Positions 4,853 to 62,250 of a stretch of 64,000 nt of DNA are shown piece by piece (the stretch's first letter is position 1; every line of letters begins with the position of its first letter). The position numbers and the translations under genes were made by a program. Location of the stretch: the IMG/VR virus record IMGVR_UViG_3300005529_000004, positions 1 to 64,000 of that record, one strand, 5' to 3'. Source of the stretch: a virus. The notes under the pieces are model-generated. The model saw only the letters and a list, made by a program, of their open reading frames with translations. It made no database searches and was not told the DNA's origin.

Positions 4853-5937
4853 GTCCGCAGGGCATCTTCATCCGCGCGAAGATCAAGGAGCTGCATCCCA
4901 GCTACAACGACCGCTTCGAGTACGCCGGACTGTTCAGCGCCGTCCCGAGCATCGACACGAGCACGCGCTGGATCGCGGGAGGCAACACCGTCGAGCCGGG
5001 CGAGCCGATGCCCAGCGCCGGTGACGTCTACCAGACCGTGTGGCTGGAGATCGAGCTGCCTGAAGGCGTCACGTCCTTCGGCTACTCGCTGAGCTTCAAC
5101 CGCAGCTTCGCCTTCGACGCCTACTCCTCCGACAACGGCGAAGTAGGTGGGCCGCTGAACCTGATCGCCGCTGCGTGGGAGGGCAGCTCGCTCGGTGCGC
5201 TCTCAGAGCTGGCGAGCGTCTTCGACGTCGCGCAGAACGGTCCGCTCAACTTCACGGTCTCGGCGGGCAACCGCTACTTCCTCCAGGTCGGCACGGCGCA
5301 GCCTGGGTCGAACGGAATCGTCATCATGGACTGCAGCGGCACCTCGGGTGGAGGCGGAGGCGGCGGAGGCGGCGTGCTCTGGAGCAACATGGACGTCAAG
5401 ATCAACGGCGTTGCCGCACCGACGTTCAACGCCGGAGGGCCGTTCTTCTTCGGCTACGTCCAGATCGGCTCCTACTTCTCCGGCAGCACGATCAACCACC
5501 ACGAGATTCGCAACCTCAAGATCGGGTCCACGCCGGGAGGCAACGACCTGTTCGATATGGGCAGCGGCAGCACGCTTGTCCCGCCCTTCCAGGCGGAGGT
5601 GCCGCCGGGATCGCCGGACATGACCATGAGCGGCGGCGTCGCCACGGTGGACAACATGGGCGCAGACGTCTACGCCACCTACGACTTCGGCACCAACCTG
5701 ACCATTCCGGTCTACATCCACTTCGAGGCGTTCATCGAGGCGGACGAGTACGCCACCGGCTTCGCGTCCGGCGACTTCCTTGACCTCGGGCAGACCGGCG
5801 GTGGGATTATCTCGGGCATCTTCTACGATCCGAGCGGTGCCTCGTCCTGGGTCTGCAACTTCACCGGGCCTGACCTGTCCGGCTGCCCACCCGCCGCAGC
5901 CGGGTCGTGGTTCACCTTCGACATCGAGCTGTCATGA
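4849..5937 (+). CDS. Putative virion protein with beta-sandwich-like domains
   Basis: 362 residues. The start is GTG 4849 in a GTGA overlap with the previous gene; the earlier in-frame codons lie inside that gene. The sequence is beta-rich. A central glycine run (GTSGGGGGGGGG, about residue 170) separates two domains, and the second resembles jelly-roll carbohydrate-binding modules in composition (FFFGYVQIGSYFSGS). It ends in an ATGA overlap with the large terminase gene. It is likely a tail or fibre component; no family is assigned. Confidence 0.72.
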   Translation: MSPQGIFIRAKIKELHPSYNDRFEYAGLFSAVPSIDTSTRWIAGGNTVEPGEPMPSAGDVYQTVWLEIELPEGVTSFGYSLSFNRSFAFDAYSSDNGEVGGPLNLIAAAWEGSSLGALSELASVFDVAQNGPLNFTVSAGNRYFLQVGTAQPGSNGIVIMDCSGTSGGGGGGGGGVLWSNMDVKINGVAAPTFNAGGPFFFGYVQIGSYFSGSTINHHEIRNLKIGSTPGGNDLFDMGSGSTLVPPFQAEVPPGSPDMTMSGGVATVDNMGADVYATYDFGTNLTIPVYIHFEAFIEADEYATGFASGDFLDLGQTGGGIISGIFYDPSGASSWVCNFTGPDLSGCPPAAAGSWFTFDIELS

Positions 5938-7352
5938 GCCGTCGCCGAGAGATCGACATCGACCCGAAGTACCTGGAGCACTTCCGCTCCAACGACGAGG
6001 CCCGTAACGAGCTGGTCGCGGCCGCGACATCCTTCCGGCAGTTCCTCAACCACTGGCGCTTCATCGATGGGCGCACGGGCGTCACGCGCATCCTGGGTGA
6101 GGAGCTGTGGCCCGCGCAGGAGGAGTGGGTCCGCATCGCCGAGGAGCATCCGTGGGTCTACTACCTCAAGGCGAGGCAGCTCGGCGAGACGACGATCGAG
6201 TGCGCGTTCGACGGCTGGGTGATGCGCTTCCGCGACACGCTCGCCCGCGTCCACATCATCGACCACCGCGATGAGGAGGCGATGGAGAAGCTGGAGGCCG
6301 TCAAGTTCGGTCTGACCCAGCTCCCCGAGGAGTGGCAGCTCCCGACGATCCGCGACACGAACCACGAGTACCGAATCGGCGTGGACGCAGCGCACCGGCG
6401 GATGATTCGCGCGTACCCGACGTCGCGCAACCCGGCCCGTGGCCAGGCTTGCACGCACGCGCACGTGGACGAGCTGGCCGCGATGGAGGGCAAGCAGCGC
6501 GCGGTCTGGAAGGCCGTCCAGCCGTCCGCGCACGGGTCGCTGCACATCCTCACGACCGGCGTCGGACCGCAGGACGAGTCGGCCACCATGTGGCGTCGAA
6601 CGATGGACGGCCGGATCATCGACCATCACGGACACCCGATGCACTCCTGCTTCATCGGCGCCCTGGAGCGCCCGGATCGCGACGAGAAGTGGCTGCGCGA
6701 GCAGCGCTCCGGCATGTCCGAAGAAGACTTCCGCCGGGAGTACGCTCTCACCTGGCAGGACGCGCTCTTCGGCGGCGGCGAGTTCGTGTTCAAGAGCGCC
6801 GAGGTGGACAAGGCAGCCGAAGACGCCTACGGCCTGCAGCCGCCGATCCCTGGCGCGAAGTACGTGAAGGCGTGGGACATCGGCCAGACAGACGCGGCGG
6901 TCGGAACGGTGCTGCGGCTGTCGAGCTACGACGGCGGCGCGATCGTCATGGACGTCGTCGCCTGGAAGCGACTGGTCGGTGCGAGCTACCCGCAGATGCA
7001 GGCGGAGATCGAGACGATGCACAAGACCTATCCCGGCCCGACCGCGATCGAGGACAACGCGATGGGAAAGGCCGTGCGCGAGAACCTCAAGCTGCCCGAA
7101 GATCAGGTTCACGGCTGGACGACGTCGAAGCCGAGTAAGGCCAAGATCATCGAGGGCCTGCGGCTCGGTCTGCAGCGCTGGTCGATCAAGTGGGACCCGG
7201 ATCAGGTGCCGCAGCTTGATGAGGAGGTTCGGGGCTACCAGATTCCCGACGACGCGATCCAGCAGGACGCCGTGATGAGCCTGGCTATCGCCATCGAGCA
7301 CGCACCGCTGGCCTACCAGACCGGGCGCATCGGCACGGTCTCCAACGTATAG
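5934..7352 (+). CDS. terL: Terminase large subunit
   Basis: 472 residues. This is the ATP-driven DNA-packaging motor and headful or site nuclease, acting at the portal of the prohead. Visible motifs: a Walker A-like KARQLGETT (79-87), Walker B HVDE (about 177-180), and RNase H-like nuclease residues in KAWDIGQTD (about 312-320), IEDNAMG (about 372) and DAVMSLAIA near the C terminus. The length is normal for the family. ATG 5934 overlaps the preceding stop (ATGA). The portal gene follows only after the tRNA arrays, and the likely small-terminase gene lies on the other strand near 16.6 kb, so the packaging genes are not contiguous. Confidence 0.93.
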   Translation: MSRRREIDIDPKYLEHFRSNDEARNELVAAATSFRQFLNHWRFIDGRTGVTRILGEELWPAQEEWVRIAEEHPWVYYLKARQLGETTIECAFDGWVMRFRDTLARVHIIDHRDEEAMEKLEAVKFGLTQLPEEWQLPTIRDTNHEYRIGVDAAHRRMIRAYPTSRNPARGQACTHAHVDELAAMEGKQRAVWKAVQPSAHGSLHILTTGVGPQDESATMWRRTMDGRIIDHHGHPMHSCFIGALERPDRDEKWLREQRSGMSEEDFRREYALTWQDALFGGGEFVFKSAEVDKAAEDAYGLQPPIPGAKYVKAWDIGQTDAAVGTVLRLSSYDGGAIVMDVVAWKRLVGASYPQMQAEIETMHKTYPGPTAIEDNAMGKAVRENLKLPEDQVHGWTTSKPSKAKIIEGLRLGLQRWSIKWDPDQVPQLDEEVRGYQIPDDAIQQDAVMSLAIAIEHAPLAYQTGRIGTVSNV

Positions 7353-8155: not shown

Positions 8156-8226
8156 ATGACCTCCTGGGAGTCGAACCCAGCGCGCCACGGTTTGCAGCCG
8201 TGGTCCTCGCCGACCGGTCGAGGCCA
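8156..8226 (-). tRNA. tRNA-Cys (GCA)
   Basis: Acceptor TGGCCTC/GAGGTCA with one G-U pair, discriminator U73 as expected for tRNA-Cys. Anticodon stem CACGG/CCGTG with loop CTGCAAA, T-arm CTGGG-TTCGACT-CCCAG. The D-arm is short. Confidence 0.82.
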
Positions 8227-8227
8227 G

Positions 8228-8299
8228 TGGGCGCGGCTCCACTCGAAGGAGAACCTGCGGGGTTACGGCCCGGCGTGCTTCCTCTTACACCACGCGCCC
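8228..8299 (-). tRNA. tRNA-Tyr-like (GTA), C33
   Basis: Acceptor GGGCGCG/CGCGCCC, discriminator A. D-stem GTGT/ACGC. The anticodon stem CCGGG/CCCGC has a mismatched outer pair and loop CCGTAAC, so the anticodon is GTA with C at position 33. The T-stem has one mismatch. No long variable arm. Confidence 0.65.
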
Positions 8300-8309
8300 A
8301 AGACGGGAG

Positions 8310-8327
8310 GCCAGCCCGAAGGCTGGC
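8310..8327. other. Short hairpin upstream of the minus-strand tRNA array
   Basis: GCCAGCC-CGAAG-GCTGGC-type hairpin (seven pairs, four-base loop) between the divergent minus tRNA array and the portal promoter. There is no T-tract on either side; function unknown. Confidence 0.4.
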
Positions 8328-8408
8328 TAGGCGAGGCGTAGATACAAACAGCGCCGCATCCGGTCCAGCTTACCGGGAAGACGCACTCCAGGCAAACTGC
8401 GTCGCCGG

Positions 8409-8414
8409 TAGACT
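8409..8414 (+). promoter_or_regulatory. -10 element TAGACT of a leaderless promoter (portal)
   Basis: CCGGTAGACT followed by seven bases and ATG 8422. No Shine-Dalgarno is present between them. The bases just before form an in-frame GTG (8419). Confidence 0.7.
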
Positions 8415-8421
8415 GGCAGTG

Positions 8422-10224
8422 ATGCCCGAGAAGACGACGCCGAAGCGCGCGACGCGCCGCCCTGCAGCATCCGCCGACAAGCCGCCGAACCTCGATGCGG
8501 CAGCGCAGGCCGTAGCGAAGGCCGTCCGCGAGGAGCCGGGGATCGGCCAGGGCCGCGTCATGAAGGTCCTGTACCTGGACGACCAGGGAAACCCGATCGG
8601 CGAGTGGGCCTCGCAGCAGCTCCCCGAAAACCCGTTCACGGGTCAGATGCAGGGACTGCAGGAGCCTCCCTTCCGCCTGGAACAGCTCGTCTACCTCGCC
8701 GAGAGCCACCCGGTTCACTCCGCCGCGCTGGAGCAGAAGACCGCCGACATCGTCGGTCGCGGCTGGGAGTGGGAGCCGGTGGATGAGCAGGAGGCGCCGG
8801 AGGAGCAGCGCGACGAGATGGCCGAGTGGTTCGAGAGCCTGGCGCCGGACGAGTTCGACATGCGCGAGGTGATCAACGCCGTCTGGCTCGACGTCGAGAC
8901 GACCGGCTGGGGCCTGTTCGAGGTGGCTCGCGATCCGTCCGGCGTGGCGCAGCGCATCTACCACGTCCCGGCGCATACCGTTCGCGCCCACCGCGCGGGC
9001 TTCAAGCTGGCGCAGATCAGGGACGCGCGCAAGGTCTGGTTCCGCCGCTGGGGAGCGGTCGAGGTGGACGGAGCGCCGGTCGAGGTGGACTCGCGGACCG
9101 GCAGCACGTCGAGCGTCAAGATTCCGGCCAACGACCTCTTCATCATCAAGCGCCCGGCGCGGCGCTCCACGTGGTACGGAATCCCCGGCTACGTGTCGTC
9201 GGTCGGCTGGATCGCGCTCGCACTCGCCGTCCGCGATGACAACCTGTTCTTCTTCGCCAACCGACGCGAGCCGCGCTGGGCGATCATCCTGAACAACATC
9301 GCCGACGACCCGAACCTGGAAGAGGACATTCGGCGCGCGTTCACGGTGGACCTGCGGCAGCCGCACCGGAACATCCTCATCCCGATCCAGGGCAACGGCA
9401 CGATCGAGTTCCAGCAGCTTTCGGGCAAGGCGCCACAGGAGGGCAGCTTCGAGAAGCTCGGCGACCGCGCCGACGCTGCGATCATGGTCTCGCACCGCGT
9501 TCCGGCGGAGCGCCTGGCGAACACGAAGACCGGACCGCTCGGCGGCAACGTCGCAGAGTGGGCGAACCGGGTCTACAAGGAGGGCGTGGTCGGGCCGGGC
9601 CAGGAGCTGCTGGCGTCGAGGCTCAACCGCTTCATCTCGGTCGAGTACGCGATTGCCACCGGCGCCAACGGCACGCGCCAGGCGAAGACGCAGAAGGCGA
9701 AGCTGAAGAAGGCACAGGCGTGGAAGCCCGCCTGGTTCATCCAGATGGACGATCTCGACATCGAGACCGACCGCGAGGAGCTGGACCTGGCCGTGATCGC
9801 TTTCCACGGAGACCTCATCACGCTGCGAGAGGCGCGCAACCGGCTGAAGCTCGGGCCGCTGATGGTCCCGAAGCAGGTGCCGATGGTAGACGAGCAGGGC
9901 AACCCGCTGCTCGACCCGGCCACGGGCGAGCCGATGGTCGGCCCGGATACTGGGACGATCGACCCGGCGACCGGCGACGTCATCGCGCCCGAGATGGTCG
10001 AGTCGCCGTACAACGACAAGCTCTTCACCGAGCTGCCGGGAGCCGCAGCGCAGGCCGGACAGCCCGGCGCCGTCCCGACTGGCTCCGGCGGGCTGCTGCA
10101 CAACGCTCGCGGCGATGGCCACGACCCGGCGATGGCGCTCCTCCTCGCGGAGACGCGCGAGTCGCTCGAAGCGTCGCGGAACATCGAGTCGCGAATCGCA
10201 GAGCTGGCTACGCGCGAGGAATGA
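8422..10224 (+). CDS. Portal protein
   Basis: 600 residues. It forms the ring at the capsid vertex through which the terminase pumps DNA and to which the neck attaches. The middle region has features of phage portals: HPVHSAALEQKTADIVGRGW, then RSTWYGIPGYVSSVG (the conserved YG.P segment) and SHRVPAERLAN. The C-terminal 120 residues are proline- and glycine-rich (DPATGEPMVGPDTGTIDPA). ATG 8422 is chosen because a leaderless -10 sits seven bases upstream; the frame is open much further upstream over the tRNA region. It ends in an ATGA overlap with the MuF gene, the usual portal-MuF order. Confidence 0.88.
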   Translation: MPEKTTPKRATRRPAASADKPPNLDAAAQAVAKAVREEPGIGQGRVMKVLYLDDQGNPIGEWASQQLPENPFTGQMQGLQEPPFRLEQLVYLAESHPVHSAALEQKTADIVGRGWEWEPVDEQEAPEEQRDEMAEWFESLAPDEFDMREVINAVWLDVETTGWGLFEVARDPSGVAQRIYHVPAHTVRAHRAGFKLAQIRDARKVWFRRWGAVEVDGAPVEVDSRTGSTSSVKIPANDLFIIKRPARRSTWYGIPGYVSSVGWIALALAVRDDNLFFFANRREPRWAIILNNIADDPNLEEDIRRAFTVDLRQPHRNILIPIQGNGTIEFQQLSGKAPQEGSFEKLGDRADAAIMVSHRVPAERLANTKTGPLGGNVAEWANRVYKEGVVGPGQELLASRLNRFISVEYAIATGANGTRQAKTQKAKLKKAQAWKPAWFIQMDDLDIETDREELDLAVIAFHGDLITLREARNRLKLGPLMVPKQVPMVDEQGNPLLDPATGEPMVGPDTGTIDPATGDVIAPEMVESPYNDKLFTELPGAAAQAGQPGAVPTGSGGLLHNARGDGHDPAMALLLAETRESLEASRNIESRIAELATREE

Positions 10225-13200
10225 ACCTCGCGGCTGCTCGCGAGCTGAACCGCGAGCACCACCGCATCCTTCGCCGTCGATTCGCCGTCGTCCAGAACGC
10301 AAGCCGCACGCACCGCACGCGGCAGGTGTCCGCCAAGCGGTACGCCACGCTCATCACACACGAGCGGGAGGTGTGGGGCGCTGGGCTGACGCGTATCTCG
10401 GACGACTTCCACTCGAAGCTCGACATCGACGCTGCGATCCAGTACTCCTACACGGAGCAGCGCCCCGGCGTCGTCAAGCGCCTGCTGCGTGCCATCCGCA
10501 AGGCCGACCCGAACCAGCCGCAGGACGGGACGCCGAACAGCCAGGAGGCGCGTGCTCGGCTGATGGCCCAGATCAACGAGGCATCGATGCTCGCCGGTGC
10601 GCTGCAGATGTACCTCGGGATGGCGATGCAGACTGACGCCGCCGCTGGGCAGATCAGCCTGGAGCATCTTGGCATCAACAAGACCTGGGCCTACGCGCAT
10701 CCGCAGAACATGGCGAACGCGCTCTACGCCGTGCGTGGGTCGAAGGTCATCCAGAACCTCTACGGCGACCACGTCGATCGCCTGACCCAGATCATCAACG
10801 AGGCCTGCGACCCACGCCACCCGTGGACGATTCAGCAGGTTCGTCAGAAGATCGCCGCCGAGTGGCCGCAGCTCCAGGCATACCAGGTGGACCGGATCGC
10901 ACGCACGGAGACGGCAGCGGTGTGGACGGCTACGTCGATGAACGCCTACGCCGCGAACGGCATCTCCGGCTGGACGTCCTCAATCGCCACCGGGCCGAGC
11001 ATCGGCATCGACAGCGAGGACCCCTGCGACGAGTGCGTGGAGGCTGCGGAGATGGTCCACACGATGGACGACGACATTCCGCCCTGGCATCCGAACTGCC
11101 GCTGCGAGGCGATCCCCGAGCTGACCGATCCCGAGACCGGGGACGAGTGGCTGCCGCCGGACGAGCCGTTCAATGGCGGAGGACCGGTCACGGTCGAGGG
11201 CACTCCTGCAGCCGACGAGTATGGGCCGCAGACGCAGGGGCCGATCCTGTCGCCGATGCCGGAGCCTGGCGCCCGCTACGCGTCCGGGCCGGGTAGCACG
11301 CTCTCGTCGTCGCCACGCAAGCTGCCGGATGGCTCGCGGGCTGCTGGATACGTGCCGACTTCGACACTCGTGGATGACCTCCGCGCTCAGCTCACGTCCA
11401 CGAACAACCGCATCTCGGGACTGAAGACCCGGCTGAAGAACCTGGACGAGTCGGACGCGCGCTATGCCGAGGTACAGGCGCGGCTGGAGAGCGAGTTTAA
11501 GAAGCGTCAAGAGCTGAAGGACCGGATCGCCGGGAAGACGCCGCCGGTCGAGCGTCCGCTGCCTCCCGAGCGCCCCGGCATTAAGACGGGACGGTCGCCG
11601 GAGGGCAGGCTCCGTAACTTCAAGGCGATGTCCGACGAGAAGCTCAAGGACGTCTGGGATCGCGTCGAGCACGAGGCGAACGATCCCGAGGCTGTCGCTG
11701 CGCTGCGTGCGGAGGGCAAGGCTCGCGGCCTGGATGATCCCTGGGGAGAAACGCCGCCTCCGCCTCCGCCTCCGCCTCCGCCTCCGCCTCCGCCTCCGCC
11801 TCCGCCGATCGAGCCGGTCACGATCGGCGACGACTGGAACGAGACGAAGTTCAACGCCGCGCTCGATCCGCTGGACGGCAACACCGTCCGCATCACGTAT
11901 CAGGGCGGTGGCCAGGTCGAGGGACAGCTCGTCAGGAGCGGGCCGTACTGGACGATCGACGGAGGAACACTCGGCAACGGTCTGGGCGTCGCGAAGATCG
12001 AGATGCGCGGGCCGGATGGCATCTGGCGCTCCGTCGCCGAGAAGCCGCCCGAGCCTGTGCTGCCACCCGAGCCGGACATGACGGCCGACGAGATTCGCGC
12101 CAAGATCACGACCCAGAACAACAAGATCAGCGGACTCAAGACGCGGATCAAGCGCCTGGAGTCGAACGGCGACCGGGACGGGAAGCTGCCCGAGGTGCGG
12201 CAGCGGCTGGCCGACGAGATCGCCGAGCGCGACCGGCTCAAGGGGCTGCTGGAGAAGGCTCCTCCGGCGCCGCGACCGGTCGTCCCGCCAGCGCCGGTGC
12301 CCGTGGCCGTGCCCGCGATGGGCGGCGACCTGTACCAGGCGACGATGGCTGTCCGCAGGCAGCTCATGGACCTGCATCAGGTCACGATCGATGACGCCGG
12401 ACTCGACAGCGTCATCGACCTCGGCACGAGGATTGACGACGCGATCCGCGACGCGATGCCAAAGGACGTCCAGTACGCCTTCGAGGATGCCCAGTCCGCC
12501 TACAACAAGGCCCTCGACGTCCGCGAGGAGACTATGGCGCCGATTGAGGCCGAGTACCGCGCCTCGCAGCAGCAGCTCAGCGCGCTCCATGACGCGACTA
12601 CCCTGCGGCTGTCAAACGGCAAGTACACCCGGTTCCGTGACGTGAGCATGTATCAGGAGCCAGAGCTGCGTCGGGCGATCCTCCACGACCCGGCTGTGGT
12701 GGAGCTGACCGACAAGACCACGGAGCTGAGCAGCGCGTTCTTCCGGCGCTCCCAGGATGAGTGGGCGAAGGTCAACGAGTACAAGGCGAAGGTCGATGCC
12801 ATCGAGGTGGACTACGTGAAGGCGCGACGGCAGGCCATCAAGGACGTCATGTCCCAGATCAGGGACATGGGCAGCGGCGCGGGCGTCCGCGTGAGGTTCG
12901 GGCACTTCCTCCGTGACTCGAAGTCTCGCGAGAGGATTGAGAAGCTGCTCACGAAGGCCCAGGAATACCTGCCCCGTGACTGGATCAGGGACATGCGTGA
13001 GATCGACGCCGGGTCAGCCCGGCGTGGCTACCACCGCAACCAGGGATCGTGGGCAGAGATCAAGGTCTCGAACAGCGACTCGCGGATCGCGGGTGACGGC
13101 AAGGGCCTCTCGACCGCGCTGCACGAGCTGGGGCACGAAGTGGAGGACATGAACTCGCTGGTCGTCCGCCTGGAACGTGCCTACTATCAGCGCCGGACTG

Positions 13201-13415
13201 AGGGCGAAGTGCTCAAGGGCGCTCCAGGCTATGGGCGTGACGAACGCTTCCGCGAGGACAAGTTCAGCGACATCTACATGGGAAAGTACTACGACGGCCG
13301 CAACTACGAGCTGCTGACGATGGGCCTGGAGTCGCTGTTCGAGACGGCGGGTCGCCGGAAGCTCATGGACCTGGATATGCGCCGGTGGCTGCTCGGCGTG
13401 CTGGCTGTCGGCTAG
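10221..13415 (+). CDS. MuF head morphogenesis protein with C-terminal HExxH metallopeptidase-like domain
   Basis: 1064 residues. Residues about 1-295 are a MuF domain: a helical region, ARTETAAVWTATSMNAY, then DPCDECVEAAEM (about 262) and HPNCRC (about 289), the cysteine/histidine pattern of the family. A linker follows, carrying two related coiled-coil segments (about 387-433 and 621-676, sharing NN.ISGLKTR) and a run of about 18 prolines (about 511-529). The C-terminal region has TALHELGHEVED with HELGH at about 968-972, a zinc HExxH motif, and glutamates in YELLTMGLESLF (about 1029-1040) that could be the third ligand. MuF proteins are injected or internal head proteins and are known carriers of polymorphic toxin domains; a delivered protease is an inference. 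Confidence 0.85.
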   Translation: MNLAAARELNREHHRILRRRFAVVQNASRTHRTRQVSAKRYATLITHEREVWGAGLTRISDDFHSKLDIDAAIQYSYTEQRPGVVKRLLRAIRKADPNQPQDGTPNSQEARARLMAQINEASMLAGALQMYLGMAMQTDAAAGQISLEHLGINKTWAYAHPQNMANALYAVRGSKVIQNLYGDHVDRLTQIINEACDPRHPWTIQQVRQKIAAEWPQLQAYQVDRIARTETAAVWTATSMNAYAANGISGWTSSIATGPSIGIDSEDPCDECVEAAEMVHTMDDDIPPWHPNCRCEAIPELTDPETGDEWLPPDEPFNGGGPVTVEGTPAADEYGPQTQGPILSPMPEPGARYASGPGSTLSSSPRKLPDGSRAAGYVPTSTLVDDLRAQLTSTNNRISGLKTRLKNLDESDARYAEVQARLESEFKKRQELKDRIAGKTPPVERPLPPERPGIKTGRSPEGRLRNFKAMSDEKLKDVWDRVEHEANDPEAVAALRAEGKARGLDDPWGETPPPPPPPPPPPPPPPPPPIEPVTIGDDWNETKFNAALDPLDGNTVRITYQGGGQVEGQLVRSGPYWTIDGGTLGNGLGVAKIEMRGPDGIWRSVAEKPPEPVLPPEPDMTADEIRAKITTQNNKISGLKTRIKRLESNGDRDGKLPEVRQRLADEIAERDRLKGLLEKAPPAPRPVVPPAPVPVAVPAMGGDLYQATMAVRRQLMDLHQVTIDDAGLDSVIDLGTRIDDAIRDAMPKDVQYAFEDAQSAYNKALDVREETMAPIEAEYRASQQQLSALHDATTLRLSNGKYTRFRDVSMYQEPELRRAILHDPAVVELTDKTTELSSAFFRRSQDEWAKVNEYKAKVDAIEVDYVKARRQAIKDVMSQIRDMGSGAGVRVRFGHFLRDSKSRERIEKLLTKAQEYLPRDWIRDMREIDAGSARRGYHRNQGSWAEIKVSNSDSRIAGDGKGLSTALHELGHEVEDMNSLVVRLERAYYQRRTEGEVLKGAPGYGRDERFREDKFSDIYMGKYYDGRNYELLTMGLESLFETAGRRKLMDLDMRRWLLGVLAVG

Positions 13416-13708
13416 GCGAGCGCGCCGCTTGGGATCGCCAGCTCGTCGGCGATTCCGACTGCGAGAGCCTTGCCCTGGTCATCCAGCTCGACCGTCGCAC
13501 GGCTGTCGAACAGCGAGAGCGCCGTCATGAAGGCATCGGGCGCGGGGCTGGCTGCCGCCTTCACCCAGGGGCCGGTGGGCGTCCAGGCGATCGACGCGCC
13601 CGTGTCCACGAGGTGCCGCGCATCGTCGGAGTCGAAGACGCCGTCCGCCCAGGAGACCTGGGCGTCGGCGCCGTTGATCTTGCCCTTGATCGTGAAGGCT
13701 TCGGCCAT
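13412..13708 (-). CDS. Small hypothetical protein
   Basis: 98 residues, acidic, mostly predicted beta (FTIKGKINGADAQVSW, then WTPTGPWVKAAAS). No family is recognised. The stop meets the end of the convergent MuF gene (4-base overlap on opposite strands). ATG 13708 is placed by TAGGCT seven bases upstream. That -10 overlaps the end of the preceding minus-strand gene, so it can be expressed separately from the operon. Confidence 0.65.
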   Translation of the reverse strand: MAEAFTIKGKINGADAQVSWADGVFDSDDARHLVDTGASIAWTPTGPWVKAAASPAPDAFMTALSLFDSRATVELDDQGKALAVGIADELAIPSGALA

Positions 13709-14816: not shown

Positions 14817-15101
14817 CTAGGCGGAAGGACCAGGCGGTCCCGGAGGACCCGGCGGTCCGGTCGGGCCAGGCGGACCCGGCGGTCCGGTCGGGCCTGGCAC
14901 CGGATCGGCCGGGGTCGGCGCCTCGGTGCCGAGGATCGGTGCGAGGTAGCCGCCCGCGAACGAGAGCACGACCGCGAACGCGGCCGCAACGTTCGTCGGC
15001 ACCGTGACCCAGTAGTGGATGGCCCAGAGGATGATCAGGGAGAGCGATCCGCTCAGACCTGCTCCGGCCACCTTCGGGTGGATGTTCAGCTTGCCGTTCA
15101 T
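14817..15101 (-). CDS. Holin-like membrane protein with collagen-like tail
   Basis: 94 residues. Two membrane helices (GLSGSLSLIILWAIHYWV and VAAAFAVVLSFAGGYLAPIL) are followed by about 30 residues of GPP-type repeats (GPTGPPGPPGPTG). ATG 15101 follows GGGGAGGTG at good spacing and overlaps the stop of the recombinase gene. Two-helix proteins of this size are common as phage holins, which open the inner membrane for endolysin. The triple-helix-forming tail is unusual. It is far from the lytic enzymes near 50-54 kb, so the holin role is inferred only. Confidence 0.7.
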   Translation of the reverse strand: MNGKLNIHPKVAGAGLSGSLSLIILWAIHYWVTVPTNVAAAFAVVLSFAGGYLAPILGTEAPTPADPVPGPTGPPGPPGPTGPPGPPGPPGPSA

Positions 15102-15754
15102 GCTTCACCTCCCCTGCGTGTGAGCTTGCGCCGCAGCGCCTCGTCGTGGACGTGTAGGTAGATGGCGGTGGTCTGGAGATTCGCGTGACGGAGCGCCTGC
15201 TGCACCTCCGGCAGAGTGTAGCCTTCCTCGATCAGGGACGTCGCGAACGAGTGGCGGAGGACGTGCGGCGTGCAGATGCCGATGATCCCGGCATCCTCCT
15301 TCGCCTTCTTCAGCAGCCGCTGCAGGTAGCGCGTCGAGACAGGCCTGCCGCTCCGCATCACGAAGATCAGGTTGCTGTTGCCAGCCCAGGCATCACGGAC
15401 CTGGAGCCAGCGGTCGAGCAGCGGCAGCACAATGTCCACGGCGAAGTAGGCGGTGCCGTCGCCGCCCTTCGCGTCGTACAGGCGGATCACACCCTCGCGC
15501 GAGACATCGCGCAGGGCGAGGTTGCAGACCTCTGAGACGCGCAGCCCGGCGTAGTACATGAAGGCGAGCATCGCGACGTTCCGCACGCCGTCCTTTTCAC
15601 TTTGCACAACCTGAAAAAGTCGCTCGGCCTCGACGCCGGAGATGACCTTCGGCAGCTTCCGCTTCTTCCGGCGAGCTGGCTCCCGTACGGTGACAAGATC
15701 GTCAAGCTCCCGTACGGTGACAAGCGGTGACGTCTTTTCGGTGTTCTGCGTCAT
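15098..15754 (-). CDS. Short tyrosine recombinase (XerC/D-like catalytic domain only)
   Basis: 218 residues. The catalytic set is visible: Arg in AGLRVSEV, TPHVLRHSFATSL (H-x-x-R), LRHANLQTT (second His) and the nucleophile Tyr in AIYLHV. The family usually has a SAM-like core-binding domain of about 100 residues in front. Here only about 40 residues precede the catalytic domain, and they contain a repeated TVRE peptide encoded by an 18-bp direct repeat. The start ATG 15754 overlaps the upstream gene. It could integrate the phage, resolve genome multimers, or act on an internal site such as the 24-bp inverted repeat at 8018; none of these is shown. Confidence 0.85.
   Translation of the reverse strand: MTQNTEKTSPLVTVRELDDLVTVREPARRKKRKLPKVISGVEAERLFQVVQSEKDGVRNVAMLAFMYYAGLRVSEVCNLALRDVSREGVIRLYDAKGGDGTAYFAVDIVLPLLDRWLQVRDAWAGNSNLIFVMRSGRPVSTRYLQRLLKKAKEDAGIIGICTPHVLRHSFATSLIEEGYTLPEVQQALRHANLQTTAIYLHVHDEALRRKLTRRGGEA
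15680..15724. repeat. 18-bp direct repeat inside the recombinase gene
   Basis: CTCCCGTACGGTGACAAG occurs at 15680-15697 and 15707-15724. The spacing keeps the reading frame, giving LVTVRE twice near the N terminus. It is most likely a small in-frame tandem duplication. Confidence 0.85.
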
Positions 15755-16224
15755 GGGCGAATGATCGGCGGCATCAGGAGGGCGACGTCGTACTGCAGCG
15801 CCGCCAGCTCGACGTGGCGTGCGAGGATCGAGTCGCCGGGAGGCTTGTAGAATCCGGCCGGGGTCGCGACGGTTCCTCGGTAGCCCTTCTCGTGACGGAT
15901 GACCTCGCCCCAGAGGTAGACCTCGCCGTAGACGAACTGGTGGCCGAAGAACTGCTCCGCGCGCGCCGGGACCTGCATCCCGAACACCGGGAAGTCGTAG
16001 GCGTAGATGCCGCAGGTGTGGATGCGCTCGCCGCCCTCGTAGACCGACCGGCGCGAGCGGCACTTGCACTCCGCCTCCAGCGGCTCACCAACCTGCCAGC
16101 GCGTCTCCTGGGCGTAGACCGACCGCAGCTCCGACTGACCGTCCCTGACGATGATCCTCCACCCTCGATACCCGACGATCGCGTCGATAACGGTGTCGCC
16201 GACGATGATCGGCGCACGCCTCAT
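15751..16224 (-). CDS. Hypothetical protein with paired cysteines
   Basis: 157 residues, no recognised family. ECKCRSRRSVYEGGERIHTC places cysteines that could bind metal, followed by aromatic-rich segments (EQFFGHQFVYGEVYLWGEVI). The gene overlaps both neighbours by a few bases, so it is part of the minus-strand operon between the small-terminase-like region and the recombinase. Confidence 0.7.
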   Translation of the reverse strand: MRRAPIIVGDTVIDAIVGYRGWRIIVRDGQSELRSVYAQETRWQVGEPLEAECKCRSRRSVYEGGERIHTCGIYAYDFPVFGMQVPARAEQFFGHQFVYGEVYLWGEVIRHEKGYRGTVATPAGFYKPPGDSILARHVELAALQYDVALLMPPIIRP

Positions 16225-30168: not shown

Positions 30169-30966
30169 TCAAGTCTCGGACGAGCTTAGCAGCTCCCGGA
30201 GACGGCGCAATGCTTCCCGCTGCCACGCCTGCACGGTGGTCGTGCTCTTGCCCACGTGCGCGGCGATCTCGCCCAGGCTCAGCGGCGGCTGGCCGTCGAA
30301 TCCGAAGCGCAGCCGGACGATCTCGCCCAGCTCCGGTGGAAGGTCGAGCAGGGCCGCGCGAAGATGCGTCGCGTCCCAGTGTCCCTCGCTCGGGTCGTCG
30401 GCGTGCGGGTCGGCGACCGTGTCCAGCAGGCTCTGGGAGTAGTCGTCATCGAGGTAGACCTCGCGGTTGAGGCTCGTCACGACCTCGGCTGCTTCGAGCG
30501 CGCGCCGAATCTCCTCCGGCTCGGCGTCCAGGTCCTTCGCGAGCTGCTCGATCGTCTTGTGCGGCTCGGCTGCGAGCGCGCCGCGCGCCTTCGCGCGATG
30601 CTCGGCGACCTGGGGAGGCAGACGGATCGTGGCCGCGTTCGCCGACAGGCCGGTGAGAATGTACTTGCGGACCCAGAGCGTGGCGTAGGTCGTGAAGCGG
30701 AAGCCCAGCTCCGGGTCAAACTTGCGCGTGGCGTGGTCGAGACCCAGCACGCCGTCCTGGACGATGTCCTCGTAGTCGCCGCGATGCCTGTAGCCGCGAG
30801 CGATGCTGAGCACGAGGCGCATATTGCACCGGATCAGCTCATGGCGCGCGCTCTCGTCTCCCCGCCCTGCTCGCCGCGCCAGGTCGCGCTCCTCCTTCGC
30901 GGTTAGCAGGCGGTGGTTGGCGGCGGAATCGAGGAACCGCTGGTGGCCCTCGTCCGTCGTTCTCAT
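30169..30966 (-). CDS. Phage-encoded sigma-70 family factor
   Basis: 265 residues with the layout of a group 2/3 sigma factor. Region 1.2 is ANHRLLTAKEERDLARRAGR. Region 2 includes LVLSIARGYRHRG, DYEDIVQDGVLGLDHATRKF (core binding) and FRFTTYATLWVRKYI (-10 recognition and melting). Region 3 is RLPPQVAEHRAKARGA. Region 4 is LRFGFDGQPPLSLGEIAAH with HVGKSTTTVQAWQREALRR (HTH). It should redirect host RNA polymerase to phage promoters, and the window has two conserved promoter classes that could be its targets. The gene has its own short-leader promoter after a terminator. Confidence 0.88.
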   Translation of the reverse strand: MRTTDEGHQRFLDSAANHRLLTAKEERDLARRAGRGDESARHELIRCNMRLVLSIARGYRHRGDYEDIVQDGVLGLDHATRKFDPELGFRFTTYATLWVRKYILTGLSANAATIRLPPQVAEHRAKARGALAAEPHKTIEQLAKDLDAEPEEIRRALEAAEVVTSLNREVYLDDDYSQSLLDTVADPHADDPSEGHWDATHLRAALLDLPPELGEIVRLRFGFDGQPPLSLGEIAAHVGKSTTTVQAWQREALRRLRELLSSSET

Positions 30967-35124: not shown

Positions 35125-36534
35125 TCACTCGCCGAGCGGTCCAGGGCTGAAGTCGTGGCCCTCCTCGGGCTGCGCCTCGGCCTGCTCGCCGTAGCCCGCC
35201 TGCTCCCGCTCCGCCCGGTAGCGCGGGTAGCGCTGGCGGATGACGTCGGCGTAGCGCGGGTCCAGCTCGACCACGAACGCGCGCCGATCGGTCAGGTCGG
35301 CCGCGATCAGGGTGGAGCCGCTGCCCGCGAACGGGTCGAAGACCACGTCGCCTGGCACCGAGCTGTTCTCGATCGCCTGCGTGATCAGCTCGACGGGCTT
35401 CATGGTCGGATGCTCGCGGCTCGCACTTGGCGCGTCCACCTCGATGACCGAGGTGCAGTTGTCCGGGCCGAACCACCGCGTCGGAACCTCGCCGGAACGG
35501 TTTGCCGCGCTGTTCTCCATCTGGCTGATGCGGCCGGTCCGACGTCCAGGCGTGTAACCGTAGTAGACCGCTTCATGCCGCAGGTGGTAGTCCGAGTGCC
35601 CGAGGATCATCCGCTGCTTGACCCAGACGAGCATCTGGAAGTAGCGCCACGGCGTCTCCAGGTTCTCGAACGAGGTAATGAAGACGCCGCCGTTGCGATC
35701 GGTCGGGCCTGCGACGTAGAACGGCGCCGACTCCTGCATGATCGTCGCGCAGGCAGTCCAGGCATCGCGCAGCAAGGCACGCAGGCCAGCCTGGTCGCGG
35801 GCGTCGTTCTGGATCGTCATCGCGTTGCCCTCGACCTTGCCGACGTAGTCCACGCCGTAGGGCGGGTCGGTCCACATCATCGTGGCCTTGCCGCCTTCAC
35901 CGAGCATCGCCTCGATGCCGGTCTTCAGCGCGTCGGCGTTCGTGGCATCGCCGCAGAACAGCAGGTGCCGCATCGGGTCCTCGGCCGGGCCGATCCAGTG
36001 GAACGAGTTGGGCGGAGTCTCGGGCGTCTCCGGCAGCTCGGGCGCGTCGTTCGTGCCGGGGATGCTGGACTCGATCCGCGACTCCATGTCCTGGAGCGAC
36101 CAGCCATGCTCGGCTGCCTGGCCCAGCCAGTACTCCGCCTTCTCCGCTCCGTAGCGTCGGACACGGCTGAAGTGCGAGAAGCTGACGCCGGGATGTCCTT
36201 CGAACCGCGTCATGTGCCGAGCGCGCTGCTCGTGCGGGAAGAACGCCGACACCGCCGCGTAGACCTTGACCGTCTTCTGGTCGAGGCCACCGATCGGGCT
36301 GGGCCGGTCGATCCACTCCCGGTACTCGCGCGGGAAGTGCGCCTTGTAGAAGTTCGCGATGTCGCCGATCGCGAAGCACGTCGCGTCGGTGATGGCGCCG
36401 AGACCTTCCGCGAGGCTCAGCAGCTCCTGCTCGGATGCACCGGGCGCGAGCTGCAGACCAACCGTCGTCATGCGGGCGTGCTCGGAGAGCGCGACTCCCT
36501 GCCCGCCGAAGACGGCAATCTCAGTGCTGCTCAA
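35125..36534 (-). CDS. DNA methyltransferase, N4-cytosine/N6-adenine (beta class)
   Basis: 469 residues. Catalytic TDPPYGVDYV (about 215) precedes the SAM-binding motif DPFAGSGSTLIAADL (about 405), the order of beta-class amino-methylases. TMKPVELI is also typical. About 190 residues in front are not part of the methylase core and look like a ParB-like/helical DNA-binding module (ARHMTRFEGHPGVSFSHFSR). It probably protects phage DNA from restriction or marks replication sites; no cognate nuclease is nearby. TTG 36534 is chosen because AAGGAGG lies eight bases upstream; GTG 36543 falls within the ribosome site. Confidence 0.85.
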   Translation of the reverse strand: MSSTEIAVFGGQGVALSEHARMTTVGLQLAPGASEQELLSLAEGLGAITDATCFAIGDIANFYKAHFPREYREWIDRPSPIGGLDQKTVKVYAAVSAFFPHEQRARHMTRFEGHPGVSFSHFSRVRRYGAEKAEYWLGQAAEHGWSLQDMESRIESSIPGTNDAPELPETPETPPNSFHWIGPAEDPMRHLLFCGDATNADALKTGIEAMLGEGGKATMMWTDPPYGVDYVGKVEGNAMTIQNDARDQAGLRALLRDAWTACATIMQESAPFYVAGPTDRNGGVFITSFENLETPWRYFQMLVWVKQRMILGHSDYHLRHEAVYYGYTPGRRTGRISQMENSAANRSGEVPTRWFGPDNCTSVIEVDAPSASREHPTMKPVELITQAIENSSVPGDVVFDPFAGSGSTLIAADLTDRRAFVVELDPRYADVIRQRYPRYRAEREQAGYGEQAEAQPEEGHDFSPGPLGE

Positions 36535-36562
36535 GTATCCCACCTCCTTCTATGACTCCCGC

Positions 36563-36568
36563 ATTGTA
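36563..36568 (-). promoter_or_regulatory. -10 TACAAT of the methylase gene
   Basis: Minus strand GCGTACAATGCG, about 20 bases before AAGGAGG. Divergent from the leaderless promoter at 36617. Confidence 0.5.
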
Positions 36569-36616
36569 CGCGAACCGCGCCGTCTCCGCGAGCGGGGCTG
36601 CGCGTTCTCTGGCCGG

Positions 36617-36622
36617 TAGACT
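36617..36622 (+). promoter_or_regulatory. -10 TAGACT of a leaderless promoter
   Basis: GGCCGGTAGACT followed by seven bases and ATG 36630; no ribosome site. Confidence 0.7.
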
Positions 36623-36629
36623 CGAACCC

Positions 36630-38096
36630 ATGAAGCCAGACGATCTCTCCGGCGTCTACCTCGTGGAGGACGGCGACGCTGCCGCTTTCTCGTGGGGACC
36701 GGACGGCGCGCGGCACTCGTTCCGTGGCGTCGAGGACGGCGAGCGCGCACTCCGCAAGGCTGTCGCGCACGGGCTGGCGGTCGAGGAGATCGCGAAGATG
36801 TCCGAGTTCGAGCGCGCGGTAGCCCGTGAGCTGTCGGTCGGCGTCGGCGTCCGCAAGGACACCTCGGGCGCCGTGATCATCGGCTACTTCCCCTTCGACG
36901 GCAACGGCGACGAGGACGATGCCTTCGCCAGCCAGCTCTCGCAGCTCGGCTCCGGCTCCGTCGCCGCGACCGACATCCACCTGACCCTGCTCTACCTCGG
37001 CGAGCCGGACCCCGCCTGGGACCTGGACCTGATCGCCGCGTGCGTCAAGATCGCTTGCTGCACCGCGATGCCGATCAAGGGCTGCGTCTCCGGCCTCGGC
37101 CGCTTCGTCGGTCCCGAGGATCAGGACGTCATCGTCGCGCTCGTGGACGTCCCCGAGCTGGGACGGCTGCGTCACCAGATCAAGGACCAGCTCCTCTGCT
37201 ACGGCGCGCTGCCCTACACAGCGCAGTGCTTTCAGGAGGAGCACGGTTACCTGCCTCACTTCACGATCGCGTACGTCTCCAAGAGTGCAGCATCGCCGTC
37301 GCCGCTGACCGAGGTCGTGCCCTTCACGCTCGATTCCCTGGCGCTGGCTGCCGGGCCGAAGCGTGTGCAGTTCGACTTCTCCGGCGGCTACGACGTCGCG
37401 ACGAGCGATCCTGCACCGTACTACGCCGCGCGCCTGCAGAAGGAAGGGCGCGTGCTGCGCCAGGAGCACCTGGAGTGGATGGAGGACTCGATCGCGCGCA
37501 TGCAGGAGATCGTGGACAGGGAGCGCCGTCGCAAGAAGCCCGGCAACCCCGAGTCGAAGGAAGACGACTCCACCGGCGACGCCGCAGCGACGGGTGGCAG
37601 CGCCGCCCAGATGTCGCGCGACGCCGATGGCACCGAGGACCTGGCCTACACCGTCACGAAGGCGCTGGAGGAGGAGCGGTTCACGCTCGGCCCGCTCTAT
37701 GCGCCGGAGCGCAAGGACGCGCATGGCGAGTGGACCGACGCCGCGACGCTGCAGAAGGCTGTCTGGTCCTTCGTGGAAGAAAGTGCTGCAAATGGGCGAC
37801 TTCTGAACCTGCAGCACGGCGATCACGGCACGCAGACGGTCGGCGAGTGGGTCGAGGTCATGGCCTGGCCCTACGAGCACACGATCAAGGTCGCCACGGC
37901 TGGCGGCGAGGAGCGCGAGCTGGAGATGCCTGCGGGCACCGTCTACCTCGGCGCCAAGTGGTCGCCGGAGGCGTGGAAGCTCGTCAAGGCCGGGAAGCTC
38001 AACGGCTGGTCGCTCGGCGGCTCGGCTGTCCGTGTTGCCACCGAGGGCGACCTGCCGATGATGGGCGATGCCAAGATTCCGGCGGCGGTACGCTAA
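36630..38096 (+). CDS. Fusion of 2H phosphoesterase and XkdF-like prohead protease
   Basis: 488 residues. Residues about 85-260 hold the two H-x-T motifs of 2H phosphoesterases, DIHLTLLYLGEP and LPHFTIAYVS, which hydrolyse cyclic phosphodiesters of RNA or nucleotides. After a charged linker (about 280-345) comes a domain like the XkdF head-maturation protease: LYAPERKDAHGEWTDA, LNLQHGDHGTQTVGEWVE (with the histidine) and KLVKAGKLNGWSLGGSAVRV. The protease would process scaffold and capsid in the prohead. The 2H role is open: RNA repair, removal of 2',3'-cyclic ends, or cleavage of cyclic-nucleotide alarm signals. ATG 36630 is set by the leaderless -10. Confidence 0.75.
   Translation: MKPDDLSGVYLVEDGDAAAFSWGPDGARHSFRGVEDGERALRKAVAHGLAVEEIAKMSEFERAVARELSVGVGVRKDTSGAVIIGYFPFDGNGDEDDAFASQLSQLGSGSVAATDIHLTLLYLGEPDPAWDLDLIAACVKIACCTAMPIKGCVSGLGRFVGPEDQDVIVALVDVPELGRLRHQIKDQLLCYGALPYTAQCFQEEHGYLPHFTIAYVSKSAASPSPLTEVVPFTLDSLALAAGPKRVQFDFSGGYDVATSDPAPYYAARLQKEGRVLRQEHLEWMEDSIARMQEIVDRERRRKKPGNPESKEDDSTGDAAATGGSAAQMSRDADGTEDLAYTVTKALEEERFTLGPLYAPERKDAHGEWTDAATLQKAVWSFVEESAANGRLLNLQHGDHGTQTVGEWVEVMAWPYEHTIKVATAGGEERELEMPAGTVYLGAKWSPEAWKLVKAGKLNGWSLGGSAVRVATEGDLPMMGDAKIPAAVR
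38089..38094 (+). promoter_or_regulatory. -10 TACGCT of a leaderless promoter
   Basis: GGCGGTACGCT followed by seven bases and ATG 38102. It overlaps the last codons of the protease gene. Confidence 0.55.
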
Positions 38097-61257: not shown

Positions 61258-62250
61258 GTGCTGAGCACGGAAGAGCTGCTCCGCAAGGCCGTTCTCTCCG
61301 ATTCCGACGGGACCGCCGGTGCCTTCGCAGGTTCCGGTGGCGACTTCGGCGGAGCGGGCCAGGCGCCGATCAGCATCGAGCAGGTCACTCAGTTCATCGA
61401 GCTGATGGCCGCATCCCAGGTCTTCCTGGGCGATGTTCGAACGGTCACCTCGGCCTCGGCCAAGTGGCAGGAGAGCATCATCAACTTCGCCTCGCGCATC
61501 GCGCGCCCCGGCGTCGAGGCCACGCGCCTCGGCACCACGGACCGCGTGAAGCCGAGTACCGGCATCGTGGAGATCTCCACCGCGCTGATCCGTGGTGAGA
61601 TCCCCGTGTCGGACGAGGTCTTCGAGGACAACGTCGCGGGTCAGAACCTGACCCAGTCGCTGGAGCGGACGATCGCCGACCGCTTCGGCTTCGACATCGA
61701 GGACCTGATGGTCAACGGCGACAAGGCCTCGGGCGACACGTACCTCGCGCTGCTCGACGGCTGGGTGAAGCAGGTCAAGACGTCCGGCAACGCCGTGGAC
61801 GCCACGACCTACGCGCAGGACTACCAGGAGATCTTCCGGGTCGTTCTCGCCAACATGCCCAAGAGGTTCCTGCGGAACCTCGTCCAGAACGGGCGCTACT
61901 ACGTCCCCGTGACCCTGGAGCAGAAGTACCGCGACATCCTCGCCTCGCGCGGGACGCCGCTCGGTGACCTGATGCTCACGGGCACGAACGAGCTGCGCTA
62001 CCAGGGCATCCTGATCAAGGGCTGCCCGTCGCTGGACGCGGGCATCGTCAGCGGTTCGCCGGACACGTCCAGCGTCCTGCTCACGAACCAGAACAACCTC
62101 TACGCGGGCTACCACCGCGCGATGAAGTTCGAGACCTGGCGCGATCCGCGCGAGGGAGCAACGTCCTTCATCGTGACGGCCAGGGTGGACGCGAAGGTCG
62201 CCGTTCCGAGCGCGGCCGTCGTCGCCTACAACGTCAACGTCGAGGTCTAG
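61258..62250 (+). CDS. Major capsid protein, HK97 fold
   Basis: 330 residues. RTVTSASAKWQESIINFASR, STALIRGEIPVSDEVFEDNV (E-loop to spine helix signature of HK97-type proteins), ADRFGFDIEDLMVNGD (P-domain), and ILIKGCPSLDAGIVSGSPDT with RAMKFETWRDPREGATSFIV near the end. It builds the icosahedral head. A delta domain is not obvious because scaffold is separate. GTG 61258 follows AAAGGAAGGG. Confidence 0.9.
   Translation: MLSTEELLRKAVLSDSDGTAGAFAGSGGDFGGAGQAPISIEQVTQFIELMAASQVFLGDVRTVTSASAKWQESIINFASRIARPGVEATRLGTTDRVKPSTGIVEISTALIRGEIPVSDEVFEDNVAGQNLTQSLERTIADRFGFDIEDLMVNGDKASGDTYLALLDGWVKQVKTSGNAVDATTYAQDYQEIFRVVLANMPKRFLRNLVQNGRYYVPVTLEQKYRDILASRGTPLGDLMLTGTNELRYQGILIKGCPSLDAGIVSGSPDTSSVLLTNQNNLYAGYHRAMKFETWRDPREGATSFIVTARVDAKVAVPSAAVVAYNVNVEV

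What the first reader, a model, noticed from the sequence alone, without database searches (positions are those of the whole stretch)
12900..13415. MuF head protein fused to an HExxH metallopeptidase-like domain
Seen: a MuF domain with its Cys/His set at the N terminus and TALHELGHEVED at about 965-976, followed by YELLTMGLESLF, in one 1064-residue protein. Known: MuF proteins can carry C-terminal toxin modules and travel into the host with the DNA. Inference: an injected protease that could attack a host defence, transcription or cell-wall protein, or process head proteins. The linker has an 18-proline run and two related coiled coils.
Basis: partly seen in the sequence, partly recalled or inferred. 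Interest (0 to 1): 0.72.

Follow-up and report, generated by a model that had tools for sequence, protein, structure and literature searches.

The report
Phage head protein carrying a protease
A virus of bacteria has a zinc-dependent protein-cutting domain joined to one of its head proteins, and in related viruses this cutter is paired with a small neighbouring gene that probably keeps it in check, so it looks like a weapon with its antidote rather than a shell-building tool.

Summary
Window 10221-13415 (+) encodes a 1064-aa MuF protein with one HExxH (H968-H972) and a downstream Glu1030. The C-terminal ~180 residues belong to a broad phage zincin family that has no Pfam or NCBIfam model. All 57 aligned rows keep both His, both Glu and several further residues, and the domain is nearly always at the extreme C terminus. 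A confident AlphaFold model shows the zincin order of helices and strands.

New here: 54 of the 57 other representatives carry a short gene (72-105 aa) directly after the protease gene. Most fall into four families that track the protease tree, and 45 of 53 end in [VILM][YF] (controls 1 of 43). In near-identical Lactococcus phages that form plaques, the protease-plus-small-gene cassette is swapped for an unrelated one or deleted. Solo copies of the small gene occur in bacterial chromosomes. This fits an effector with its immunity protein and argues against head maturation. In the window the probable partner (13412-13708) lies convergently on the minus strand; its homology is suggestive only. 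MuF-metallopeptidase fusions were already reported in 2017 (PMC5576092), so the kind is known. Delivery, target, proteolysis and inhibition are untested.

The parts
10221..13415 (+). MuF-zincin gene, 1064 aa
   Evidence: single open frame from ATG overlapping the portal stop; codon-position G+C typical of the phage's genes
10833..11138 (+). MuF (SPP1 gp7-like) domain, residues ~205-306, with the Cys/His set DPCDEC...WHPNCRC
   Evidence: phrog_115 E 2e-11, phrog_4728 E 3.5e-10, TIGR01641 E 5e-4 below cut-off; Pfam PF04233 only 0.036
11373..11519 (+). first coiled-coil segment, residues ~385-433
   Evidence: self-alignment with the second segment
11754..11807 (+). 18-proline run encoded by a (CCGCCT)n repeat
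   Evidence: sequence; no run of this length in other family members
12087..12236 (+). second coiled-coil segment, residues ~623-672, related to the first
   Evidence: self-alignment
12876..13412 (+). C-terminal zincin domain, residues 886-1064
   Evidence: tblastn, PHROG, relatives and AlphaFold model pLDDT 85.7, pTM 0.85
13122..13136 (+). HELGH (His968, Glu969, His972), predicted zinc ligands and general base
   Evidence: invariant in 57 of 57 aligned rows
13308..13310 (+). Glu1030, predicted third zinc ligand
   Evidence: invariant in 57 of 57 aligned rows, at the start of the second helix
13412..13708 (-). 98-aa gene, probable cognate partner, convergent with the MuF gene (stops overlap by 4 nt)
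   Evidence: best of 1143 window frames for the partner-family D profile, E 0.024 (next 2.6) (0.043 with one more member); coding-type codon-position G+C 0.67/0.53/0.90
8200..10224 (+). portal protein gene, directly upstream
   Evidence: phrog_12 portal E 3.6e-14; Pfam PF04860 E 1.8e-6, below its cut-off
5907..7352 (+). terminase large subunit
   Evidence: phrog_2 E 3.6e-19

Best explanation
The gene encodes a virion-borne effector of the MuF polymorphic-toxin type. The MuF part places a few copies in the phage head (inferred from family knowledge); the long coiled-coil and proline linker holds the C-terminal zincin; on infection the protein, or its C-terminal part, is expected to enter the cell and cut a host protein of unknown identity (inferred). 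The zinc-protease assignment rests on an invariant HExxH and downstream Glu and on the predicted fold (shown by sequence and model, not by assay). In relatives a small neighbouring protein is the cognate partner and most likely the immunity protein that holds the protease in check in the producing cell or lysogen. That the partner exists, tracks the protease and moves with it is shown by sequence; that it inhibits is inferred. Its conserved C-terminal hydrophobic-aromatic tail is the likely contact with the protease (inferred).
For: Invariant HExxH...E and R935, R992, E1008, D1013, Y1019, G1021 in 57 of 57 rows. AlphaFold secondary structure: helix, three strands, HExxH helix, Glu helix, the core order given for zincin-like peptidases in PMC5512222. 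MuF (PF04233) in 36 and Phage_min_cap2 in 6 of 51 full-length members. Short gene from -13 to +16 nt of the protease stop in 53 representatives, plus an unannotated one in Bacillus phage 125 (E 2.5e-12). Shared tail in 45 of 53 against 1 of 43 controls. Partner families track the protease tree: 9 changes against a shuffled mean of 33.7. Cassette replacement between portal-MuF (98.7-99.8% identical DNA) and scaffold (98.4-99.2%) in Lactococcus phages: zincin plus 72-aa gene in 62503 and 50902, a DUF3626-like domain plus another small gene in 58502 and P1045, a remnant in BM13 and 62502, deletion in Q33. Solo partner genes and orphan protease fragments with partners in Bacillota genomes. Precedents: MuF toxins Apk2 and Bxa are blocked by adjacent small immunity proteins (PMC12226406, PMC11699363).
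Against: No toxicity, proteolysis, delivery or inhibition has been tested. In the window itself no partner follows on the same strand; the convergent 98-aa gene is only weakly similar to family D (E 0.024-0.043) and ends in Ala, not Tyr/Phe. The read-through model of protease plus partner gave confident domains but pTM 0.65, so no confident interface. The closest solved folds are weak (best E 0.021, TM about 0.3).
Confidence: 0.65

Rival explanations
1. A self-processing or head-maturation protease: the zincin cuts the MuF protein or other head proteins during assembly, and the small gene is its chaperone or timing inhibitor.
For: It sits in the head gene cluster; the zincin of phage P1 DdrB is proposed to cut its own protein before packaging (PMC5512222).
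Against: Lactococcus phages Q33, BM13, 62502 and 58502 have no zincin but keep the same portal, MuF N terminus, scaffold and head genes; Q33, 58502, 62502, 62503 and 50902 were all scored for plaques (PMC5301393). Flavobacterium phage pippi8-1 has a separate annotated ClpP-type protease. Solo partner genes lie in chromosomes away from any head genes.
Confidence: 0.15
2. An injected helper protease that removes a host defence or regulatory protein to aid infection or lysogeny, without being a toxin; the small partner is a regulator or packaging chaperone rather than immunity.
For: Fits the view that moderately toxic MuF domains such as peptidases could steer lysis-lysogeny or counter defences (PMC5576092) and the polyvalent-protein model (PMC5512222).
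Against: Exchange with an unrelated C-terminal domain plus its own small gene, orphan partner genes and repeated partner copies in Ligilactobacillus ruminis look more like toxin-immunity.
Confidence: 0.17
3. A catalytically inactive structural or binding domain that only looks like a zincin.
For: No significant match to a solved protease; some HExxH folds are not proteases.
Against: Absolute conservation of all predicted zinc ligands and the general base across deep divergence (24% mean column identity).
Confidence: 0.03

Closest known systems
MuF polymorphic toxins (Jamet et al. 2017, PMC5576092)
   Same: N-terminal MuF head protein next to portal and terminase, C-terminal enzymatic domain, small gene next to it; 20% of their 191 MuF toxins had a metallopeptidase domain and 89% were followed by a small ORF.
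   Different: The main text does not say which metallopeptidase families they saw and supplements could not be read; this family has no Pfam or NCBIfam model. In the window the small gene is convergent, not downstream.
Apk2-IapK and Bxa MuF toxins (PMC12226406, PMC11699363)
   Same: MuF fusion with C-terminal enzyme and adjacent small immunity protein; IapK works by occluding the active site.
   Different: Enzymes are an alarmone synthetase and an ADP-ribosyltransferase, not a protease; both also have an enzymatic immunity protein.
Zincin-like metallopeptidases of polyvalent phage proteins (Iyer et al. 2017, PMC5512222)
   Same: Phage-borne zincin core with HExxH and a Glu in the second helix.
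   Different: Here the domain is terminal, usually the only enzyme in the protein, and has a cognate small gene. Their 12 clades could not be compared here.
PPEP-1/Zmp1 and lethal-factor-like zincins
   Same: Top, weak fold matches (PPEP-1/Zmp1 E 0.02; LF E 1.5); gluzincin-type HExxH...E.
   Different: No sequence match to solved structures; one of 51 members touches Pfam ATLF at E 0.008. Not a member by any test here.
PHROG families 19443, 8561 and 33618
   Same: The same C-terminal domain (E 5e-7 to 2e-14 for the whole protein), in minor head proteins.
   Different: Whole-protein clusters annotated as minor head protein or unknown; the protease and its partner are not described there.

Membership tests
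MuF polymorphic toxin | N-terminal MuF domain | tested here: met
   phrog_115 E 2e-11 and others; Pfam and TIGR01641 below their cut-offs
MuF polymorphic toxin | gene lies with terminase and portal | tested here: met
   terminase 5907-7352, portal 8200-10224, MuF from 10221
MuF polymorphic toxin | C-terminal domain exchanged between close relatives | tested here: met
   met for family members in Lactococcus phages; for the window only identical contigs were found
MuF polymorphic toxin | small immunity-type gene adjacent | tested here: inconclusive
   54 of 57 other representatives yes; in the window only a convergent, weakly similar gene
MuF polymorphic toxin | carried by a temperate phage | tested here: inconclusive
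   integrase-type recombinase at 15101-16069, E 6e-34; lysogeny not shown
MuF polymorphic toxin | C-terminal domain toxic, neighbour protects | not testable with these tools
   needs expression assays
zincin-like metallopeptidase | HExxH and a downstream Glu ligand, conserved | tested here: met
   57 of 57 rows
zincin-like metallopeptidase | N-terminal helix, three strands, HExxH helix, Glu helix | tested here: met
   AlphaFold secondary structure, pLDDT 85.7
zincin-like metallopeptidase | significant match to a solved zincin | tested here: inconclusive
   best PDB match PPEP-1/Zmp1 at E 0.021, TM about 0.3
zincin-like metallopeptidase | proteolysis | not testable with these tools
   needs a biochemical assay
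PPEP / lethal-factor (ATLF) peptidases | sequence-family membership | tested here: not met
   no Pfam hit for the window domain, no PDB sequence hit
phage head-maturation protease | needed for head assembly | tested here: not met
   sister phages lacking the domain form plaques; tested in Lactococcus phages only

The most novel reading that the evidence does not exclude
A widespread phage system in which a capsid-borne zinc protease is paired with small inhibitor proteins of several dissimilar families that share one C-terminal hydrophobic-aromatic tail. The tail would reach the protease active site as a product-like plug, a common inhibition mode across phages of Bacillota, Spirochaetota, Bacteroidota and other hosts.
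Probability: 0.35. Interest if true: 0.75.

Novelty: new variant of a known kind. Interest (0 to 1): 0.55.

Why it matters
MuF toxins studied so far are an alarmone synthetase and an ADP-ribosyltransferase; a protease branch with a recognisable partner would give a third enzyme class and a route to its bacterial target. The Lactococcus phages that are near-identical around this cassette are ready-made natural knock-outs for asking what MuF effectors do for a phage. The shared tail of otherwise dissimilar partners is a clear hypothesis that one structure or one truncation can test.

Tried and rejected
Head-maturation role: rejected as the main reading because of natural deletions. Chance HExxH: rejected. 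Membership in the ATLF or PPEP families: not supported. Profiles of the diverged partners could not be scanned in viral contigs because no stretch is conserved enough. Close relatives of the window's MuF part and of its 98-aa gene: only identical contigs found. Single-sequence phmmer of partners found no window frame; only the family D profile did. Folding protease and partner as one read-through chain in an in-frame relative: confident domains, no confident interface (pTM 0.65), coordinates not available, and its PDB search gave nothing significant. The proline run as a substrate: not supported, since no other family member has such a run.

Full report
What is there. The finding lies in a 1064-residue protein encoded at 10221-13415 (+), directly after the portal gene and behind the large terminase. 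The record is an 89,259-base virus contig. The motif TALHELGHEVED is at residues 965-976 as stated, is the only HExxH in the protein, and about 0.025 would be expected by composition. The MuF part is divergent: Pfam and TIGR01641 stay below their cut-offs, while PHROG minor-head and head-morphogenesis families match at 1e-10 to 1e-11. The linker holds two related coiled coils and an 18-proline run encoded by a CCGCCT repeat. Two other contigs in the virus collection are 100% identical over the stretches compared.

The C-terminal domain is a real family. It has no Pfam or NCBIfam hit and no sequence match to a solved structure, but tblastn finds it in phages of Bacillus, Streptococcus, Lactococcus, Planktothrix and Flavobacterium. 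Profile-guided scans returned 22 loci in bacterial and archaeal genomes and 80 in viral contigs. Every relative that is not truncated keeps HExxH, and in all but one the protein ends 96 to 125 residues after the start of HExxH, so the domain sits at the C terminus. The scan pattern was a different motif (DxFxxPYxGK), so HExxH conservation was not built in. In 57 aligned rows H968, E969, H972, E1030, R935, R992, E1008, D1013, Y1019 and G1021 never vary. Of 51 full-length members 36 match PF04233 and 6 match Phage_min_cap2; a few are stand-alone or attached to other modules.

Fold. AlphaFold with the 57-row alignment gives pLDDT 85.7 and pTM 0.85, with a helix, three strands, the HExxH helix and a later helix that starts at the conserved Glu. 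That is the core order described for zincin-like peptidases of phage polyvalent proteins (PMC5512222). Best solved matches are PPEP-1/Zmp1 but weak (E 0.021); in the viral library the significant matches include head-morphogenesis proteins and uncharacterised phage proteins. I could not inspect coordinates, so the geometry of the zinc site is untested.

A cognate small gene. Among 58 representatives (one is the window's own phage), 53 others have an ORF of 72-105 aa beginning between 13 nt before and 16 nt after the end of the protease gene. Bacillus phage 125 has one that is not annotated (profile E 2.5e-12). They form four sequence families plus three singletons. Despite their difference 45 of 53 end in [VILM][YF], against 1 of 43 other small ORFs that follow long ORFs in the same loci. 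The partner families follow the protease tree: 9 label changes against a shuffled mean of 33.7, with families A and B each one clade. In a read-through model of protease plus partner from a relative, the partner is a small alpha/beta domain followed by an extended C-terminal stretch, but the docking is not confident (pTM 0.65).

In the window. No such gene follows on the plus strand. On the minus strand, its stop overlapping the MuF stop by 4 nt, is a 98-aa gene (13412-13708) with coding-type base composition. It is the best of 1143 window frames for the family D profile (E 0.024, next 2.6), with the match concentrated in the first ~20 residues. I regard it as the probable partner, convergently placed. 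It ends in GALA, close to GAVI, GAIC and GAIV of family D members, but not aromatic.

Natural exchange. In Lactococcus phages of genus Vedamuthuvirus the portal and MuF N terminus are 98.7-99.8% identical in DNA and the region from the scaffold gene onwards 98.4-99.2%, but what lies between differs completely: zincin plus 72-aa gene (62503, 50902), a DUF3626-like C terminus plus an unrelated 73-75 aa gene (58502, P1045), a shortened remnant of the latter (BM13, 62502) or nothing (Q33). Enterococcus phage phiFL4A has an ADP-ribosyltransferase domain at the same place. Q33, 58502, 62502, 62503 and 50902 were all scored for plaques (PMC5301393), so the zincin is not needed to make an infectious virion there. 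In 247 genomes of the family of Lactococcus chungangensis, partner family B had 8 places: 5 next to a complete zincin, 1 next to a C-terminal zincin fragment and 2 alone. Ligilactobacillus ruminis has repeated partner copies and orphan zincin fragments. Such exchanges, orphans and solo neighbours are the usual signs of toxin-immunity modules.

How it most likely works. Shown: a conserved zincin-type active site on a MuF head protein, a co-inherited small partner with a shared tail in relatives, exchange as one cassette, and dispensability for the virion in Lactococcus phages. Inferred: packaging of a few copies, entry into the cell, cleavage of a host protein, and inhibition by the partner. 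The target is unknown. The closest experimental precedents are Apk2 with IapK, which occludes the active site, and Bxa with its two immunity proteins.

Novelty. Jamet and colleagues (PMC5576092) reported in 2017 that 20% of 191 MuF toxins carry a metallopeptidase domain and that 89% have a small ORF behind them. The kind is therefore known. I found no description of the invariant pattern of this family, of its partner families with the common tail, or of the Lactococcus exchange, within the papers I could search; subscription papers and supplements were not available.

Noticed in passing
L104:1894-6309: One 1472-aa frame holds a portal domain, an intein with a LAGLIDADG homing endonuclease, a MuF domain and the zincin.
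   Followed up: no
L081:2995-6255: MuF-zincin protein of 1087 aa with three helix-turn-helix (HTH_17) matches and an AbiEi-like stretch in the linker.
   Followed up: no
L007:5308-7553: Planktothrix phage PaV-LD and its relative L105 have the zincin without MuF; PaV-LD's protein starts with a Cys motif (SYNCGxxCI), and in L105 the gene after the zincin starts with the same motif.
   Followed up: partly
L004:6444-6725: Bacillus phage 125 has an unannotated partner gene between MuF and the next annotated gene, with no obvious ATG start.
   Followed up: yes
L123:5059-5292: Solo partner-family B gene directly behind an integrase in a chromosome of the Lactococcus family, with no zincin nearby: possible stand-alone immunity gene.
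   Followed up: partly
L119 and L120: Ligilactobacillus ruminis carries several partner genes and orphan C-terminal zincin fragments, like orphan modules of other polymorphic toxins.
   Followed up: partly
11754-11807: The proline run is a CCGCCT hexamer repeat, a candidate for length variation; the contigs seen have the same length.
   Followed up: partly
61258-62247: A head protein (phrog_1623 E 8e-67, weak major-head match) lies about 50 kb from terminase, portal and MuF, with replication genes on the minus strand in between.
   Followed up: no
30172-30966 and 36435-38093: The phage carries an RNA polymerase sigma factor gene (E 4e-52) and a 553-aa protein with RNA-ligase-type matches (E 3e-45).
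   Followed up: no
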